This document shows, piece after piece, positions 28,229 through 34,921 of a stretch of 35,256 nt of DNA. Source of the stretch: Thaumarchaeota archaeon 13_1_40CM_4_38_7. Lineage in GTDB: Archaea; Thermoproteota; Nitrososphaeria; Nitrososphaerales; Nitrosopumilaceae. The first letter of the stretch is position 1, and every line of letters begins with the position of its first letter. The stretch lies in the NCBI GenBank assembly GCA_001917995.1, contig MNFB01000023.1:1-35256 (forward strand), given 5' to 3'. A program made the translations under genes and the position numbers. Below the pieces are notes generated by a model, which ran no database searches, was not told where the DNA came from, and saw only the letters and a list, made by a program, of their open reading frames with translations.

Positions 28229-28801
28229 ATGCTAATCTTTTTACCTGACATATCAAGAACATGCATAGTGAAAAAACAGGGATTAGTCATAGTTTATACT
28301 GGTAAAGGGAAGGGTAAAACTACTGCCGCACTTGGAATGGCGCTTCGAGCTATAGGATATGATCACAAAGTTTGCATGATTCAATTCATTAAAGGTTCAT
28401 GGCACTATGGCGAAATGACTTCATCAAAAAAACTGGAGCCAGAATTTGAGCTTACCGCAGTTGGAAAAGGATTTGTTGGCATTATGGACGATAAGAGTTC
28501 TATTGAAGAGCATAGGAAGATTGCCAATGAAGCCCTTCATATAGCCCAAAAAAAAATCAACTCAAAAAAATATAACCTTGTAATACTTGACGAAATAAAT
28601 TATGCTGTAAATCTTGGTTTGATAAATCTAGACGATGTACTAGATTTGATAATGAAAAAACCTAAAGATCTAAATCTAGTCTTGACTGGAAACTATGCTA
28701 GAAACGAGATAATTGATTTAGCTGATCTGGTAACTGAAATGAAAGAAATAAAACATCCGTTTAAATCAGGAATAAGAGCTAGAGAAGGAATCGATTTTTA
28801 A
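28229..28801 (+). CDS. cobO: Corrinoid adenosyltransferase (CobO/CobA/BtuR family)
   Basis: GLVIVYTGKGKGKTTAALGMALRAIGYDHKVCMIQFIKGSWHYGE; NLVILDEINYAVNLGLI; LVLTGNYAR; ADLVTEMKEIKHPFKSGIRAREGIDF. Real start may be GTG about 28268. Confidence 0.94.
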   Translation: MLIFLPDISRTCIVKKQGLVIVYTGKGKGKTTAALGMALRAIGYDHKVCMIQFIKGSWHYGEMTSSKKLEPEFELTAVGKGFVGIMDDKSSIEEHRKIANEALHIAQKKINSKKYNLVILDEINYAVNLGLINLDDVLDLIMKKPKDLNLVLTGNYARNEIIDLADLVTEMKEIKHPFKSGIRAREGIDF

Positions 28802-28830
28802 TCAGCAACATTAAATTACGTACCAAAAAC

Positions 28831-29640
28831 TTGAAGGTTATGACTACAACTATTCAAGATTTCCCTGAAGTTGGAGAAATTATAGTTGCTACTATAACTA
28901 GAATAATGGATCAGGGAGCTTATGTTACACTTGACGAATATAATAATATACAAGGATTTTTACATGTTTCTGAGATCACTACCGGATGGATAAGAAATGT
29001 GGAGAAATTTCTCAGGGTGGGAGAAAAGAAGGTATTACTTGTAAAGCGTGTTGATTCTGCTAGGTCTGAAATTGATTTATCATTAAAACAAGTATCTACT
29101 GACCAAAAAAAGAAGAAGTTGTTAGAGCTAAAACGTAGAGAAAAAGAAAAGGCATTAGTAGAGAATCTAAAATCAAGGGCAAGTCTATCTAAAGTCGAGA
29201 TCGACAAAATAGAAAGCATGTTGATTGAAAAATTTGATACTGTATATGACGCATTTTCCGAAGTTGCGGCCAAAGGTAAATTGATATTAGATAATCTCAA
29301 CATATCCCCCAAGGCATTAGCGGTAATTGAGGAATTAAGCGCTAAAATTCAAATTCCGCATGTAGAAATTCGCGGAATATTAGAATTAATTTGCACCAAG
29401 TCTAATGGTATAGAAATAATTAAAAGCGCTTTATTAGAGGTTGCCGATAACAAAAATGTAGATGTGTCAATAACCTACATTGGAGCCCCAAAATATCGTA
29501 TTACAATTATTGCGCAAAATTTTAAGGAAGCTGAAAAAGAGTTAAAGCCAATACTTTCGTCAATTCAGGACACTATTGAGAAGAAGGGCGGCACCTTCAA
29601 ATTCACAAGGGAAGAATCCAAGAAGACACGTGAAGGTTAA
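28831..29640 (+). CDS. eif2a: Translation initiation factor aIF2 subunit alpha
   Basis: S1 domain FPEVGEIIVATITRIMDQGAYVTLDEYNNIQGFLHVSEITTGWIRNVEKFLRVGEKKVLLVKRVD. ATG at 28840 also possible. Confidence 0.95.
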   Translation: MKVMTTTIQDFPEVGEIIVATITRIMDQGAYVTLDEYNNIQGFLHVSEITTGWIRNVEKFLRVGEKKVLLVKRVDSARSEIDLSLKQVSTDQKKKKLLELKRREKEKALVENLKSRASLSKVEIDKIESMLIEKFDTVYDAFSEVAAKGKLILDNLNISPKALAVIEELSAKIQIPHVEIRGILELICTKSNGIEIIKSALLEVADNKNVDVSITYIGAPKYRITIIAQNFKEAEKELKPILSSIQDTIEKKGGTFKFTREESKKTREG

Positions 29641-29642
29641 TC

Positions 29643-29798
29643 ATGAAGTTTCAGATGCGAAAATGCCCTTCATGTAAGAGATATACTTTGAAAGAAGAGT
29701 GTTCTAGATGCACAAGTAAGACTGTCAGTGTTCACCCAGGAAAATATTCCCCAGATGACAAGTACGCAAGATACCGCATATCAGATAGGTACAAGTAG
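29643..29798 (+). CDS. nop10: H/ACA RNP protein Nop10
   Basis: 51-aa ORF absent from supplied track: MKFQMRKCPSCKRYTLKEECSRCTSKTVSVHPGKYSPDDKYARYRISDRYK; CxxC zinc ribbon and PxKYSPxDKYxRYR are Nop10 hallmarks. Confidence 0.93.
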   Translation: MKFQMRKCPSCKRYTLKEECSRCTSKTVSVHPGKYSPDDKYARYRISDRYK

Positions 29799-29803
29799 CC
29801 AAG

Positions 29804-32569
29804 TTATTTGGCAGTGTTATTTGAAGCAGATACTATCGTGACTTTATCTATTCGCGCCGCATCAGCATCTTCTGGTTGATTAGTGGGATTTGTTTTCAGT
29901 GATGCTATCTTATCGACAATATCTTGTCCTGATATTACCTGACCAAAAAGTGTGTATTGTCCATCCAACCAGGGAGCATCCCCCAAGGTAATGAAAAACT
30001 GCGAGCTGCCACTATTGACATCAGAACCACGGGCCATTCCAACCATGTATTTTGTGAATTTCATATTATTAAATTCAGGAGGAATGGTATACCCAGCATC
30101 TCCCAGACCCCATGTATCTCTTGATCCGTTAATTGTATTAGGGTCGCCTGCTTGTATAACAAATCCAGGCATTATTCTGTGAAATATTGTTCCTCTATAA
30201 AATCCAGAGTTTGCTAGCATTTCAAAATTTGATACGGTTTTAGGTGCAACATTATCTAGTAATTTAATTGATATTTGACCAAATTTGGTATCTATTGTGG
30301 CAGTATCGCCAGTGGCATTAGAGCTGCTAGTTGGTTTAACTTCTGGTTTTGCTTGTGGCAAGTTATTTGCTTGTGGTACGCTATTTGCTTGTTGCATATA
30401 ATCGGGATTGACTTGATATAAAAGAACTCCAGAAAAGATACCTGAATCGTTTCTATTTATGCTAGGTGAAGAATATACCAGTCTTAAGGGTCCATTGCCA
30501 TTTTCAGGGTACTTGATTGTTTTTGCATATATTGCAGTATATCCAAGCGTATAGTTTGCTGATTCGGTATGAGTGTTAGGATCGTAATATGTCAGAGTAG
30601 CAAAGGGAAACATTTGACCAAGCATTGTATTTTGCCAGAAATATTTGGTAGGTGTGAACTGGTCCTCTTCAAGGAACTTGGATAAATTATATCCAGCGAT
30701 TCTGATAAACCACTGTTTCTTACTCTCATCTCCTCCTCCCCCAAGAACATACAACTCTTGTCCATTTGAGATAAATTTTTGACCAACCACATATACAAGA
30801 ACATAATTTGCGCCCATTTCTCTTAGTGCCTTCCATGCATCATCTGGTGAACTAAGAAACATTCGAGCTATGGTAGCTATTCGTTCAGTATCAATAGTGG
30901 CGTTATCTGCAAGGCTTTTTCTCTCTCCCAAAGTCTGAATCCAGTATCCATAATCCCACCACGAAGCTACTACAGAATCCTTAGGTGTATTGGTTTTTAT
31001 CCAATTCAATGTAACAGGCCAGTCATCAGTTGAAATAGCATAATTTGATCCACCATTAAGAATAGTTGGAGGAGCTTTTGTCATTGATATCCAATTAGCA
31101 TTAACTGGAAACATTGTAGGTACCAAAAGAATGGCTACTATAACTGCCACAAATGAAATCTTTGGTATTCTTCCAAGCAAATCTATAGTTTTCTTTCCCT
31201 TGGATGCTCCCTTTTTTGATGGCTCTGTGACCTTAACATGCTTTTCTTCTTTTCTTAAGATTTCAGATACAATAGCAGTCAACCCAACTGATGACAGCAC
31301 GATAACAGATGTTGCAGTCAATAATTCTAACCTAGAAAATGTCGATCCTGCGTATGCACCTACTATGCCAATAATTAAAGCAAAAACTATCATTTCATTC
31401 CTAAGAGATAATGGTTGAGGAGAATTAGTTTCTGTATTCTTCCTAAATATTAGCCAAATTCCAAGACCGGCAAATAGCATAAGGACCGAAAAGTAAGTAA
31501 AGTTTTGTGCAAGCGTTGGCGTTGCATGTTCTGCAACAGAATCTACCAAGGGATCCTCTGAGGTAAGGAACGGATTTACTGCATTCAAGTAACGAAAGCT
31601 AGCTGTATGAAGAATTCCTGAAGAAAAGATCACTATCCCTATTATGACTAGTGCTGCCAGAACTAACAAGGTATTTCGCAGGCGAACTGGTTCTTTGCTA
31701 AATTTATGAACAAGAATTATTATAACAAGCAATATGGTTGGACCGATTAGGACAAATCCTCGTATTCCAAACACAAAACTTGGCCCTGGTCTTGCAAACA
31801 TTCCTCCAGCCACTACCATTGTAGCAGCAACAAAGAGTGGAATAGCCCAGAGTAAGAATTTATGATCTTTTTTAACAAAAGGCAACACAATAAAAAATAA
31901 CCCTAGTGGAATTAGGAAAAATTCAACACCACCCCATGCCGCAAACCCAACGCCTAGAAAGAATCCAGCACCGATGAGCTTTGCAGCTGCGATTTTAGGA
32001 TTGTCTGATTTGAGCCCGCTCAGAAATAGATAGATTCCCAGTAGACCATAGAATAGTCCAAGGGGTTCTGATTTGAACCACCCTATAGTACCTCTTACTA
32101 TTATAGGAGGTGATAAGGCAAAGAAAAGTGAAGCAAAAAGACCTGCAGTTGTACCACCAATCACACGTACAAGAGCAAATACGATAATGGCTGTTAGGGA
32201 ACCGAAGACTACTGGGAATATTATTGTAAAGTTATACAAGCTTGTACCACCTCCAAAAATTTTATACAAAATTGCATCTGTAAAATGAAGTGGTACCTGG
32301 GCAGTGGCAAAGACATCTCTTCCTTGTGGATACCAACTCATATCATCATGCCAATGAACGTATGCGTCTATTCCGTGATCTAGTAAGTATTGAGTTGCCC
32401 TATAATTAAAATAAGGATCAAATTCATTTAGTTGAAAACCATAATCGGCTGCTTGGGACCTGACCATCGCCGATATAGAAAATGATATTGCAAGTATTGC
32501 AATAATAAGCAAATGGCGTAAATGAAAATCAAAATTTCTTATGTTAAATAACTTTGTATCTTGAATCAA
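29804..32569 (-). CDS. aglB: Oligosaccharyltransferase STT3/AglB fused to C-terminal cyclophilin-type peptidyl-prolyl isomerase
   Basis: 921-aa single ORF. N-terminal multi-TM GT-C region with EFDPYFNYRATQYLLDHG and catalytic SWWDYGYWIQTLGERKSLADNAT; Q/N/P-rich linker; C-terminal cyclophilin ATIDTKFGQISIKLLDNVAPKTVSNF...FHRIMPGFVIQAGDP...MARGSDVNSGSSQFFITLGDAPWLDGQYTLFGQV. Confidence 0.93.
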   Translation of the reverse strand: MIQDTKLFNIRNFDFHLRHLLIIAILAISFSISAMVRSQAADYGFQLNEFDPYFNYRATQYLLDHGIDAYVHWHDDMSWYPQGRDVFATAQVPLHFTDAILYKIFGGGTSLYNFTIIFPVVFGSLTAIIVFALVRVIGGTTAGLFASLFFALSPPIIVRGTIGWFKSEPLGLFYGLLGIYLFLSGLKSDNPKIAAAKLIGAGFFLGVGFAAWGGVEFFLIPLGLFFIVLPFVKKDHKFLLWAIPLFVAATMVVAGGMFARPGPSFVFGIRGFVLIGPTILLVIIILVHKFSKEPVRLRNTLLVLAALVIIGIVIFSSGILHTASFRYLNAVNPFLTSEDPLVDSVAEHATPTLAQNFTYFSVLMLFAGLGIWLIFRKNTETNSPQPLSLRNEMIVFALIIGIVGAYAGSTFSRLELLTATSVIVLSSVGLTAIVSEILRKEEKHVKVTEPSKKGASKGKKTIDLLGRIPKISFVAVIVAILLVPTMFPVNANWISMTKAPPTILNGGSNYAISTDDWPVTLNWIKTNTPKDSVVASWWDYGYWIQTLGERKSLADNATIDTERIATIARMFLSSPDDAWKALREMGANYVLVYVVGQKFISNGQELYVLGGGGDESKKQWFIRIAGYNLSKFLEEDQFTPTKYFWQNTMLGQMFPFATLTYYDPNTHTESANYTLGYTAIYAKTIKYPENGNGPLRLVYSSPSINRNDSGIFSGVLLYQVNPDYMQQANSVPQANNLPQAKPEVKPTSSSNATGDTATIDTKFGQISIKLLDNVAPKTVSNFEMLANSGFYRGTIFHRIMPGFVIQAGDPNTINGSRDTWGLGDAGYTIPPEFNNMKFTKYMVGMARGSDVNSGSSQFFITLGDAPWLDGQYTLFGQVISGQDIVDKIASLKTNPTNQPEDADAARIDKVTIVSASNNTAK

Positions 32570-32599
32570 ACTAGGTTTTGATGGAATTTCCTCTGTTTA

Positions 32600-33256
32600 T
32601 TACTCTTTTGTAAGGATCTGTACTTCACAGGATTTTACTAGATTTTTGAATTCGGTTGCATCATTTTCATTGCCAACTATTGTACCATAATGCATTGGAA
32701 TTGCAATTTTTGGCTTTATGGTTTCTGTAGCTTGGGCAGCTTCTCTTGCTGTCATGACATAGGTTCCACTAACAGGTACCAATAGAATATCTGGTCTTAA
32801 ATCAGACATTTCAGGAATGAGGTCTGAATCACCAGTGTGATAGATGCTGATTCCTTTAATGCTTACCAAGAATCCAACTTTATTGTCTTCTTTTGGGTGA
32901 AATGGTTTTTTCGTATCAGGGTTTATCTTATCAATGTTATACGCATTGACTGCTCTAATTCTTATGCCATCAATTGTTTTATTCTCACCTGGCATGATGC
33001 CTATTTTCTCCTTGTATGAGATTCCAGTGATCTTGTTAAGACATTCTTTTGCTGTTACAATTGTTGTCTTATTTGTTGATATTTTTTTTAGGTCTTCAAG
33101 ACTTAGATGATCAAAATGATCATGTGAAATTAATATCAGATCTGCCTCTGATTTTTTTGATATCTTGTAAGGATCAGTGTAGATTTTGATATCTCCTTCT
33201 AGGCTAAATGTATCATGGCCATACCATTTTATCTGTAATCCTTTGTATTCAAACAT
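32600..33256 (-). CDS. UlaG-like metallo-beta-lactamase-fold metal-dependent hydrolase
   Basis: IKWYGHDTFSLEGDIKIYTDPYKI, LILISHDHFDHLSLEDLKKI, ISIYHTGDSDLIPEM, IAIPMHYGTI. Confidence 0.87.
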   Translation of the reverse strand: MFEYKGLQIKWYGHDTFSLEGDIKIYTDPYKISKKSEADLILISHDHFDHLSLEDLKKISTNKTTIVTAKECLNKITGISYKEKIGIMPGENKTIDGIRIRAVNAYNIDKINPDTKKPFHPKEDNKVGFLVSIKGISIYHTGDSDLIPEMSDLRPDILLVPVSGTYVMTAREAAQATETIKPKIAIPMHYGTIVGNENDATEFKNLVKSCEVQILTKE

Positions 33257-33280
33257 GACTTAATCTTGTCTATCTAAGAG

Positions 33281-33657
33281 TTAAATTTTACTTGATTCCA
33301 AAATTATTTTATTATTTGCCACAGACAGAATTGAGCCACCATTTTCTCTTATTCTCTTCTTAAGTTCTGCATCAATTGTTGCTATGATTCCGCCATTTTT
33401 CTTGGTGTATTCTACCAAAGCATCATCAACCGAATTTCCGGAAATCTTTATGGTTTTAAAATTTTGTATAATTTTTAAAGCATAAGAAGCAGAACTTTTT
33501 TTTTATTATTAAGAGAAATCCTTTCTAATTCTTGAATAACCAAGTTTGGTACAACAAACTCTATGGCACCTATTTCAGTCTCTATATTTTGAATATTTTT
33601 TATTCGATTTGAAGCTAATAGCATAACAAAACTCGTGTCACAGATAACCTCAACCAA
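33281..33657 (-). pseudogene. PIN-domain (Fcf1/VapC-like) protein gene interrupted by a one-base frame change at an A9 run
   Basis: MVEVICDTSFVMLLASNRIKNIQNIETEIGAIEFVVPNLVIQELERISLNNKKK, then a stop in frame 0. In the -1 frame it continues SSASYALKIIQNFKTIKISGNSVDDALVEYTKKNGGIIATIDAELKKRIRENGGSILSVANNKIILESSKI*, the expected PIN C-half. Confidence 0.75.
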
Positions 33658-34921
33658 TCGCTACACCTGCACCAATTAATCTCCATCTTTCTGCCATTCT
33701 TCTACTTATTGCAACCTTGCTGTTCTCAAAGAGACACACAGGTCTTTTAAATTGAATCTCTACTGTCTTACCTCTCACGCTTGTAACCTTGGAAAGAAGA
33801 GGGGCAGTACCTATACTCAATCTTAGGGATTCGCCAGTTTGTACAGATGAAACCTTGATTTCGTCAGAAGCTCCCACTGCGGTATCAAATAGATTTACCT
33901 CAATTTTTGCATTGTAGGAATTTTCCGGTAGTGTTCCTGGTTCACCTATTACAGAACCAATTAGCGAATCGCTTCTTGTCATAGATGGATCTAATTTAGT
34001 TGCAATAGCTACTAATCCGCCAGGTTTTACCTCTTCTACAATTCCTGCACCTGTCCCAAGCGATGCTATCTCTGTGATAATAGATTCATATTTTCCTGTT
34101 TTTTCATTTGGTAGTCCTGGTTTTATCTCGATTTCATCCCCCTTCTCAAAAGTTCCTTGTATTACGCTTCCTCCAATGACACCGCCCTTCATGTCTTTAA
34201 TCTTCGTTCCAGGTTTGTTAACATCAAACGATCTTAACACATGCATGACAGTACTTTTAGATTCATCTCTTTGTGGAATCGGTATTGATGACTCAATTGC
34301 ACCTATTAGTGCGTCCATGTTTAATTTTGATTGAGCGGAAATTGGGATGATGGGAGCCTTTGCAGCATTTGTTCCTTTGACGAATTGTGCAATTTCTGAA
34401 TAATTTGTCATCGCATCTTCATAGGAAATAAGGTCTACTTTGTTTTGAACCAAGACTATTTCCTTTATTCCAAGTGTCTGCAGAGCAAGCAAGTGTTCTT
34501 TAGTTTGTGGCTGAGGAACCTTTTCGTTTGCCGCAATTACTAACATAGCACCGTCTATTAGTGCGGAACCAGAAAGCATATTGGCCATTAGACTTTCATG
34601 TCCAGGACTATCCACAAAGCTTACTACGCGCGATAATTCACTTTCTTTTCCACAGTTATTACACTTGGGTGTGACCGAATATCCTAGCGGGGGCTCACAG
34701 TTCTTACATTTATAGAATGCAGCGTCAGCGTAACCAACCCTAATAGTAATTCCTCGCTTGAGCTCTTCACTATGTGCACTGGTCCAAATTCCAGTTAAAG
34801 CTTGGATTAGAGTAGTTTTGCCGTGGTCTACATGACCTGCAGTTCCAATGTTAACACATGGTTGATAACCATATTTCTTTACATACCAATCAGGAAGTGT
34901 TTCTTTCCAGTGCACAGACAA
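33650..34921 (-). CDS. eif2g: Translation initiation factor aIF2 subunit gamma
   Basis: QPCVNIGTAGHVDHGKTTLIQALTG, CKNCEPPLGYSVTPKCNNC zinc knuckle, FVDSPGHESLMANMLSG, VQNKVDLISYEDA. Confidence 0.97.
   Translation of the reverse strand: MSVHWKETLPDWYVKKYGYQPCVNIGTAGHVDHGKTTLIQALTGIWTSAHSEELKRGITIRVGYADAAFYKCKNCEPPLGYSVTPKCNNCGKESELSRVVSFVDSPGHESLMANMLSGSALIDGAMLVIAANEKVPQPQTKEHLLALQTLGIKEIVLVQNKVDLISYEDAMTNYSEIAQFVKGTNAAKAPIIPISAQSKLNMDALIGAIESSIPIPQRDESKSTVMHVLRSFDVNKPGTKIKDMKGGVIGGSVIQGTFEKGDEIEIKPGLPNEKTGKYESIITEIASLGTGAGIVEEVKPGGLVAIATKLDPSMTRSDSLIGSVIGEPGTLPENSYNAKIEVNLFDTAVGASDEIKVSSVQTGESLRLSIGTAPLLSKVTSVRGKTVEIQFKRPVCLFENSKVAISRRMAERWRLIGAGVAIG

What the first reader, a model, noticed from the sequence alone, without database searches (positions are those of the whole stretch)
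29804..32569. STT3/AglB oligosaccharyltransferase fused in frame to an extracytoplasmic cyclophilin
One uninterrupted 921-aa ORF joins a complete STT3 (WWDYG catalytic motif) through a linker (QQANSVPQANNLPQAKPEVKPTSSSNATGD) to a near-complete cyclophilin domain (roughly 29807-30310) that keeps FHRxxPGFxxQxGD and SQFFIT...WLDG. The STT3 C-terminus lies on the extracytoplasmic side, where substrates emerge, so the fusion implies coupled N-glycosylation and prolyl isomerisation of secreted proteins such as the S-layer. I do not know of this as a characterised architecture, but cannot rule out that it is common in Thaumarchaeota.
Basis: partly seen in the sequence, partly recalled or inferred. 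Interest (0 to 1): 0.82.

Follow-up and report, generated by a model that had tools for sequence, protein, structure and literature searches.

The report
Oligosaccharyltransferase fused to a prolyl isomerase
In most lineages of ammonia-oxidising archaea the enzyme that attaches sugars to secreted proteins carries, on a flexible tail outside the cell membrane, a second enzyme that helps proteins fold; this is a real, old and conserved fusion that we found described in no paper we could search.

Summary
The 921-aa ORF (29804-32569, minus strand) is real. It joins a complete STT3/AglB (residues 1-724), a disordered 30-aa linker and a cyclophilin (758-902). It is not an assembly join: 96 fetched ORFs (78 distinct sequences) carry both domains, in Nitrosotalea, Nitrosotenuis, Nitrososphaera, Nitrosocosmicus and others. 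On an STT3 tree, deep relatives are unfused; the simplest history is one gain on the ammonia-oxidiser stem and several losses, including most marine Nitrosopumilus. Two unfused proteins keep a linker-like tail. The cyclophilin is under purifying selection and keeps its catalytic Arg in all copies and its pocket in nearly all. No transmembrane segment follows residue 494, so it lies outside with the STT3 C-terminal domain. Most likely it is an OST-tethered prolyl isomerase acting on emerging secreted chains; isomerase activity and coupling are inferred. It cannot be essential for glycosylation: N. maritimus has an unfused AglB and an N-glycosylated S-layer. The rival, mere membrane anchoring, stays open. 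No paper in the library searched describes the fusion. Novelty: new variant of a known kind. Passing find: the whole order has Lys for the metal-binding Asp in STT3's second acidic motif.

The parts
29804..32569 (-). STT3-cyclophilin fusion ORF, 921 aa, TTG start, stop codon included
   Evidence: full-length relatives
30398..32569 (-). STT3/AglB oligosaccharyltransferase part, residues 1-724: polytopic membrane domain (last hydrophobic segment 462-494) and extracytoplasmic C-terminal domain with WWDYG (537-541)
   Evidence: Pfam PF02516 and core domains; PDB sequence match to human STT3A E 4.4e-55; Foldseek to OST-A/OST-B/yeast Stt3/AglB; hydropathy
32408..32428 (-). first acidic motif NEFDPYF (residues 48-54, Asp51)
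   Evidence: invariant D51 in alignment A1
32063..32083 (-). second acidic motif GWFKSEP (residues 163-169): Lys166 where other STT3s have the metal-binding Asp; Glu168 kept
   Evidence: all rows of the order; Asp in human STT3A and in most other families of the phylum sampled
30947..30961 (-). WWDYG catalytic motif (residues 537-541)
   Evidence: invariant
30308..30397 (-). linker (residues about 725-754), Ser/Thr/Asn/Pro/Gln-rich, predicted disordered, with one N-A-T sequon
   Evidence: AlphaFold pLDDT below 50 at 729-753; relaxed selection; linker lengths and composition in relatives
29864..30298 (-). cyclophilin-type peptidyl-prolyl isomerase domain (residues 758-902)
   Evidence: PF00160 147.9 bits; genome placement; Foldseek to solved cyclophilins, rmsd from 1.2 A; catalytic residues R798, F803, Q806, F859, W867, L868

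Best explanation
The gene encodes a bifunctional secretory-pathway enzyme. The polytopic STT3 part transfers a lipid-linked glycan to Asn-X-Ser/Thr sites of polypeptides emerging outside the membrane (from homology). A flexible linker of about 30 residues tethers a cyclophilin to its extracytoplasmic C-terminus, so the prolyl isomerase is concentrated where the chain leaves the translocon and meets the OST. It most likely speeds proline-limited folding, or keeps the chain open so that sequons stay accessible, for S-layer and other envelope proteins. Shown: fusion, conservation, purifying selection, intact catalytic residues, sequence features consistent with an outside location. Inferred: isomerase activity, substrates and any gain from proximity. 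The domain is accessory, not required for glycosylation.
For: Conserved in-frame fusion across most ammonia-oxidising lineages with single-gain parsimony on the STT3 tree; one clade of fused cyclophilins plus the Nitrosocosmicus copies is not rejected (p-AU 0.43). Purifying selection: dN/dS about 0.10-0.13 for the cyclophilin, 0.04-0.08 for STT3, 0.16-0.6 for the linker. Catalytic Arg in 77/77, Gln63 in 76/77, Phe113 in 75/77 fused copies. Confident domain folds with a disordered linker; no transmembrane segment after residue 494. In some Nitrososphaeraceae the fused domain is the only cyclophilin found in the genome (G057, G307). N. viennensis AglB, detected in its proteome (NVIE_RS12080, PMC12153357), is the fused form if G292 is that species, and that species N-glycosylates its S-layer.
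Against: No direct assay. N. maritimus has an unfused AglB (714-aa frame in G162, whose length matches that species) and 17 N-glycans per S-layer protein (PMC11153153), so the domain is dispensable for OST function. It has been lost several times. Other extracytoplasmic cyclophilins exist with other anchors, so tethering to the OST is not the only way to place one there. In humans the PPIase FKBP11 sits at the OST-A translocon with its catalytic site buried (PMC12804085), a warning that such a domain may act as an adaptor. The relative orientation of the domains is not determined by the model.
Confidence: 0.55

Rival explanations
1. Anchoring only: STT3 serves as a membrane anchor for the cell's extracytoplasmic cyclophilin, and the two activities do not influence each other.
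For: Deep unfused families carry a separate cyclophilin behind an N-terminal membrane segment (L169-L172). Nitrosopumilaceae have a secreted cyclophilin of about 515 aa with a PsbP-like and a CFI-box C-terminal region. Nitrosocosmicus carries a 90.5% identical copy of its fused cyclophilin on an unrelated 484-aa protein. In the near-complete ammonia-oxidiser genomes with an STT3 that I compared by eye, an extracytoplasmic cyclophilin of one kind or another was present.
Against: The same partner and the same order of domains were kept over the whole radiation from Nitrosotalea to Nitrososphaera and family f3, while a simple signal anchor would do as well.
Confidence: 0.35
2. Non-catalytic role: the cyclophilin binds prolyl segments of substrates or partner proteins as a recruitment or chaperone module, as FKBP11 is thought to do at the human OST-A translocon.
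For: FKBP11 precedent (PMC12804085). His126 of CypA is Tyr in all 77 fused copies and Trp121 is often Phe or Asn.
Against: The catalytic Arg and pocket are conserved in nearly all copies; Tyr at 126 is equally usual in stand-alone cyclophilins of the group (15 of 18).
Confidence: 0.08
3. Local artefact: an assembly join or frame error merging two genes.
For: One genome shows the two domains in different frames (L049/L117).
Against: 96 ORFs (78 distinct) from independent assemblies, including complete genomes, carry the fusion.
Confidence: 0.01

Closest known systems
Archaeal AglB / eukaryotic STT3 oligosaccharyltransferases (PF02516)
   Same: Fold, WWDYG, first acidic motif EFDP, SVAE motif; best PDB sequence hits are human STT3A/STT3B and yeast Stt3, best structural hits OST-A, OST-B, yeast Stt3, then A. 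fulgidus AglB
   Different: C-terminal linker plus cyclophilin; Lys instead of Asp in the second acidic motif
PpiA/PpiB-type single-domain cyclophilins
   Same: Cyclophilin fold and catalytic residues
   Different: Covalently attached to the OST; Tyr at CypA position 126
FKBP11 at the human OST-A translocon
   Same: A prolyl isomerase placed beside STT3A where chains emerge (PMC12804085)
   Different: Different PPIase family, separate subunit, catalytic site buried; analogy, not homology
NmPin, membrane-associated parvulin of Nitrosopumilus maritimus
   Same: Active PPIase on the outer membrane surface, proposed to act on S-layer folding (PMC4922055)
   Different: Parvulin, held by a lysine patch, not fused
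Ost3/Ost6 (TUSC3/MAGT1) oxidoreductase subunits of eukaryotic OST
   Same: A folding-enzyme domain held at the OST to keep acceptors accessible (from my own knowledge)
   Different: Thioredoxin-fold subunit, not a cyclophilin, not fused to STT3

Membership tests
STT3/AglB oligosaccharyltransferase (PF02516) | Pfam STT3 profile above its cut-off | tested here: met
   99.5 bits against 24.5
STT3/AglB oligosaccharyltransferase (PF02516) | WWDYG in the C-terminal domain | tested here: met
   residues 537-541, invariant
STT3/AglB oligosaccharyltransferase (PF02516) | First acidic motif Asp and SV(A/S)E Glu | tested here: met
   D51 and E347 invariant
STT3/AglB oligosaccharyltransferase (PF02516) | Second acidic motif GxxDx(D/E/H) | tested here: not met
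   GWFKSEP: Lys for Asp, Glu kept, in all rows of the order. A group-wide variant; N-glycosylation is nevertheless reported for N. viennensis (PMC12153357) and N. maritimus (PMC11153153), so I keep the protein in the family by fold, profile and the other motifs
STT3/AglB oligosaccharyltransferase (PF02516) | STT3 fold | tested here: met
   Foldseek TM-score 0.71-0.78 by target length to human and yeast STT3
STT3/AglB oligosaccharyltransferase (PF02516) | Glycan transfer activity | not testable with these tools
   needs an assay
Cyclophilin (PF00160) | Pfam profile over nearly full length | tested here: met
   147.9 bits, positions 3-151 of 159
Cyclophilin (PF00160) | Catalytic Arg55, Phe60, Gln63, Phe113, Leu122 (CypA numbering) | tested here: met
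   R798, F803, Q806, F859, L868
Cyclophilin (PF00160) | Prolyl isomerase activity | not testable with these tools
   needs an assay
TIGR04154 archaeosortase-A-associated STT3 | NCBIfam cut-off of 450 bits | tested here: not met
   120.3 bits

The most novel reading that the evidence does not exclude
An ancestral ammonia-oxidising archaeon built a covalent glycosylation-and-folding machine in which prolyl isomerisation by the tethered cyclophilin controls which Asn-X-Ser/Thr sites STT3 can modify, with an OST catalytic site that uses a lysine in place of a metal ligand.
Probability: 0.12. Interest if true: 0.8.

Novelty: new variant of a known kind. Interest (0 to 1): 0.52.

Why it matters
N-glycosylation and proline-limited folding compete for the same emerging chain. 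An OST that carries its own prolyl isomerase makes that relation testable in a single polypeptide. The trait looks ancestral for a group central to the nitrogen cycle and was lost in most marine lineages, which gives natural with/without comparisons with cultured species on both sides (N. viennensis fused; N. maritimus and N. piranensis unfused). Surveys of AglB or of cyclophilins in these archaea can miscount if they look at one domain only.

Tried and rejected
Assembly artefact: rejected by the relatives. Independent internal translation of the cyclophilin: the only nearby in-frame ATG (residue 725) and TTG (737) have no ribosome-binding-site-like purine run upstream; not pursued. Fusion elsewhere in the phylum: none among the longest STT3 ORFs I fetched outside the order, whose extra C-terminal parts are not cyclophilins; not exhaustive, and other phyla were not searched. 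A conserved operon with folding or translocation genes: no; neighbours are eIF2-alpha, cobA, a metal-dependent hydrolase and eIF2-gamma, kept in order in many relatives but not of the same pathway. Presence of the fusion as the switch for glycosylation (N. viennensis glycosylates, N. piranensis not detected): rejected because N. maritimus is unfused and glycosylated. Several origins of the fused cyclophilin: not needed, one clade not rejected, though the short domain resolves the deep branches poorly. Ten paper searches found no description of the fusion; subscription papers such as Nikolayev et al. 2020 on AglB evolution were not found in the library, so prior mention there cannot be excluded.

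Full report
Observation. The ORF 29804-32569 (minus strand) encodes 921 aa without interruption. Pfam finds STT3 (24-418), the STT3/AglB core region (508-592) and a cyclophilin (758-902). The genome (G000, 76 contigs, about 80% complete) has one STT3 and two cyclophilins: this one and a 161-aa stand-alone protein on contig C9 that begins directly with the cyclophilin domain.

It is not an assembly join. In the window's genus about 30 genomes align over both domains in one open frame at 71-87% identity. The named genome collection gives full-length relatives in records labelled Nitrosotalea, Nitrosotenuis, Nitrososphaera, Nitrososphaeraceae, Nitrosocosmicus and a few labelled Nitrosopumilus. 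In 306 genomes of the order, at least 76 align across both domains as a single match (my count from the listed rows; the list is cut, and further genomes such as G043 appear as two pieces in one frame). Of the loci fetched up to L176, 96 ORFs (78 distinct sequences, 886-986 aa when complete) hold both domains.

Distribution and history. Deep families of the order (f4, f6, f7, f9-f17) have unfused STT3 of about 710-810 aa. On an STT3 tree of 60 representatives these lie on one side; the ammonia-oxidiser side has fused members at its base (f2/g50, f3) and in Nitrososphaeraceae, and Nitrosopumilaceae split into a mostly fused group and an unfused, mainly Nitrosopumilus group. Parsimony needs seven changes, at least six forced by well-supported branches; one of them is a frame break in a single genome (L049/L117). 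One gain and several losses is the simplest reading. Two unfused proteins, L108 (Nitrosopolaris) and L142, still end in a long low-complexity tail where the linker would be, as expected after loss of a terminal domain. The fused cyclophilins of Nitrosopumilaceae form one clade (100/96); deeper branches are poorly resolved. After removal of four divergent rows, holding all fused cyclophilins plus the two Nitrosocosmicus copies as one clade is not rejected (p-AU 0.43); without those copies p-AU is 0.11. Stand-alone cyclophilins of ammonia oxidisers group instead with the membrane-anchored cyclophilins of deep families (96/93).

Function of each half. STT3: WWDYG, the first acidic motif and the SV(A/S)E Glu are invariant. 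Its best solved relatives by sequence are human STT3A, STT3B and fungal Stt3, and by fold OST-A, OST-B, yeast Stt3 and then A. fulgidus AglB. Selection between the window and its nearest relatives is purifying in both domains (dN/dS about 0.04-0.08 for STT3, 0.10-0.13 for the cyclophilin where synonymous change is not saturated) and weaker in the linker (0.16-0.6) (simple counting method). AlphaFold from a 62-row alignment gives mean pLDDT 82, confident domains and a disordered linker at 729-753. The relative orientation of the domains is therefore unknown and probably not fixed. No hydrophobic segment follows residue 494, so the cyclophilin lies on the same side as the catalytic C-terminal domain, outside the membrane by homology to solved OSTs.

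Context in the cell. Some Nitrososphaeraceae genomes (G057, G307) have the fused domain as their only cyclophilin match. Nitrosopumilaceae other than the window's genus have a different extracytoplasmic cyclophilin of about 515 aa (signal, cyclophilin, PsbP-like, CFI-box C-terminus); fused genera such as g22 and g36 have both. So an outside cyclophilin seems to be kept in this group by different anchors; this is the main support for the anchoring rival.

Link to published biology. N. viennensis has one AglB, NVIE_RS12080, detected by proteomics, and N-glycosylates its S-layer and multicopper oxidases; N. piranensis AglB is roughly five to fifteen times less abundant by NSAF and no N-glycosylation was detected (PMC12153357). 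G292 is fused (928 aa), G164 (723 aa) and G162 (714 aa) are unfused. The tempting link, fusion equals glycosylation, fails: N. maritimus carries 17 glycans per S-layer subunit (PMC11153153). The domain is thus accessory. In humans a different prolyl isomerase, FKBP11, sits near STT3A at the translocon, with its catalytic site buried, and was argued not to act as a nascent-chain isomerase (PMC12804085).

Known or new. A survey of archaeal PPIases mentions some multi-domain cyclophilins with the domain at the N-terminus and keeps 106 of 122 homologues after curation, without naming this fusion (PMC8530231). The AglB papers read do not mention a cyclophilin. Ten literature searches gave no description; the library lacks most subscription papers, so prior mention cannot be excluded. 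Both domains are textbook families; the architecture is what is new to me. I rate it a new variant of a known kind.

Side observation. The second acidic motif of STT3, which carries a metal-binding Asp in solved OSTs (from my own knowledge; human STT3A reads GSYDNE here), reads GW(F/Y)KSEP in every STT3 row of the order, fused or not. Elsewhere in the phylum Asp is usual, but a few families have Lys (GFFKHE, L214-L216) or Arg (GFFRNE, L207-L208). It predates the fusion and is a separate lead: the basic side chain could take the place of the metal ion or change its binding.

Noticed in passing
window 32063-32083 (-), and every STT3 row of the order; L207, L208, L214-L216: Second acidic (metal-binding) motif of STT3 has Lys for Asp (GWFKSEP) throughout the order, and Lys or Arg in a few other families of the phylum, with the neighbouring Glu kept. 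A possible change in metal use by these oligosaccharyltransferases.
   Followed up: partly
L160, L161, L163, L166 (and about 505-525 aa ORFs): A second extracytoplasmic cyclophilin in Nitrosopumilaceae: signal, cyclophilin, PsbP-like region, CFI-box C-terminal domain with a membrane segment; not seen in the window's genus.
   Followed up: partly
L125:1478-2929 and L124:2927-5884 (genome G043): A Nitrosocosmicus-like genome carries a 90.5% identical copy of its STT3-fused cyclophilin on an unrelated 484-aa protein: recent duplication or gene conversion.
   Followed up: partly
L162:1892-4660 (genome G258): A 923-aa protein with a signal-like N-terminus joins a cyclophilin, a glucose/sorbosone dehydrogenase domain and a DsbA-like thioredoxin domain.
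   Followed up: no
L164:1263-3068 and L165:1180-3117 (minus and plus strand): 602-646 aa ORFs in another family of the phylum (f40) join what looks by eye like a solute-binding-protein region to a C-terminal cyclophilin.
   Followed up: no
genomes G037, G053, G100, G101 (family f2, genus g2): Genomes of at least 97% completeness with neither an STT3 nor any cyclophilin match; the related genus g50 has the fusion.
   Followed up: no
L049, L117: One genome has a frame break at the linker, with the cyclophilin intact in another frame: sequencing error or a recent split.
   Followed up: partly
window 30308-30397 (-) and relatives: Linkers carry an Asn-X-Ser/Thr sequon in 54 of 76 distinct cases against 42.8 expected from shuffling, so the tether may itself be glycosylated; relatedness not corrected.
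   Followed up: partly
window 28229-34921: STT3 sits downstream of eIF2-gamma and a metal-dependent hydrolase, with eIF2-alpha and cobA convergent on the other side; this order is kept in many relatives.
   Followed up: yes
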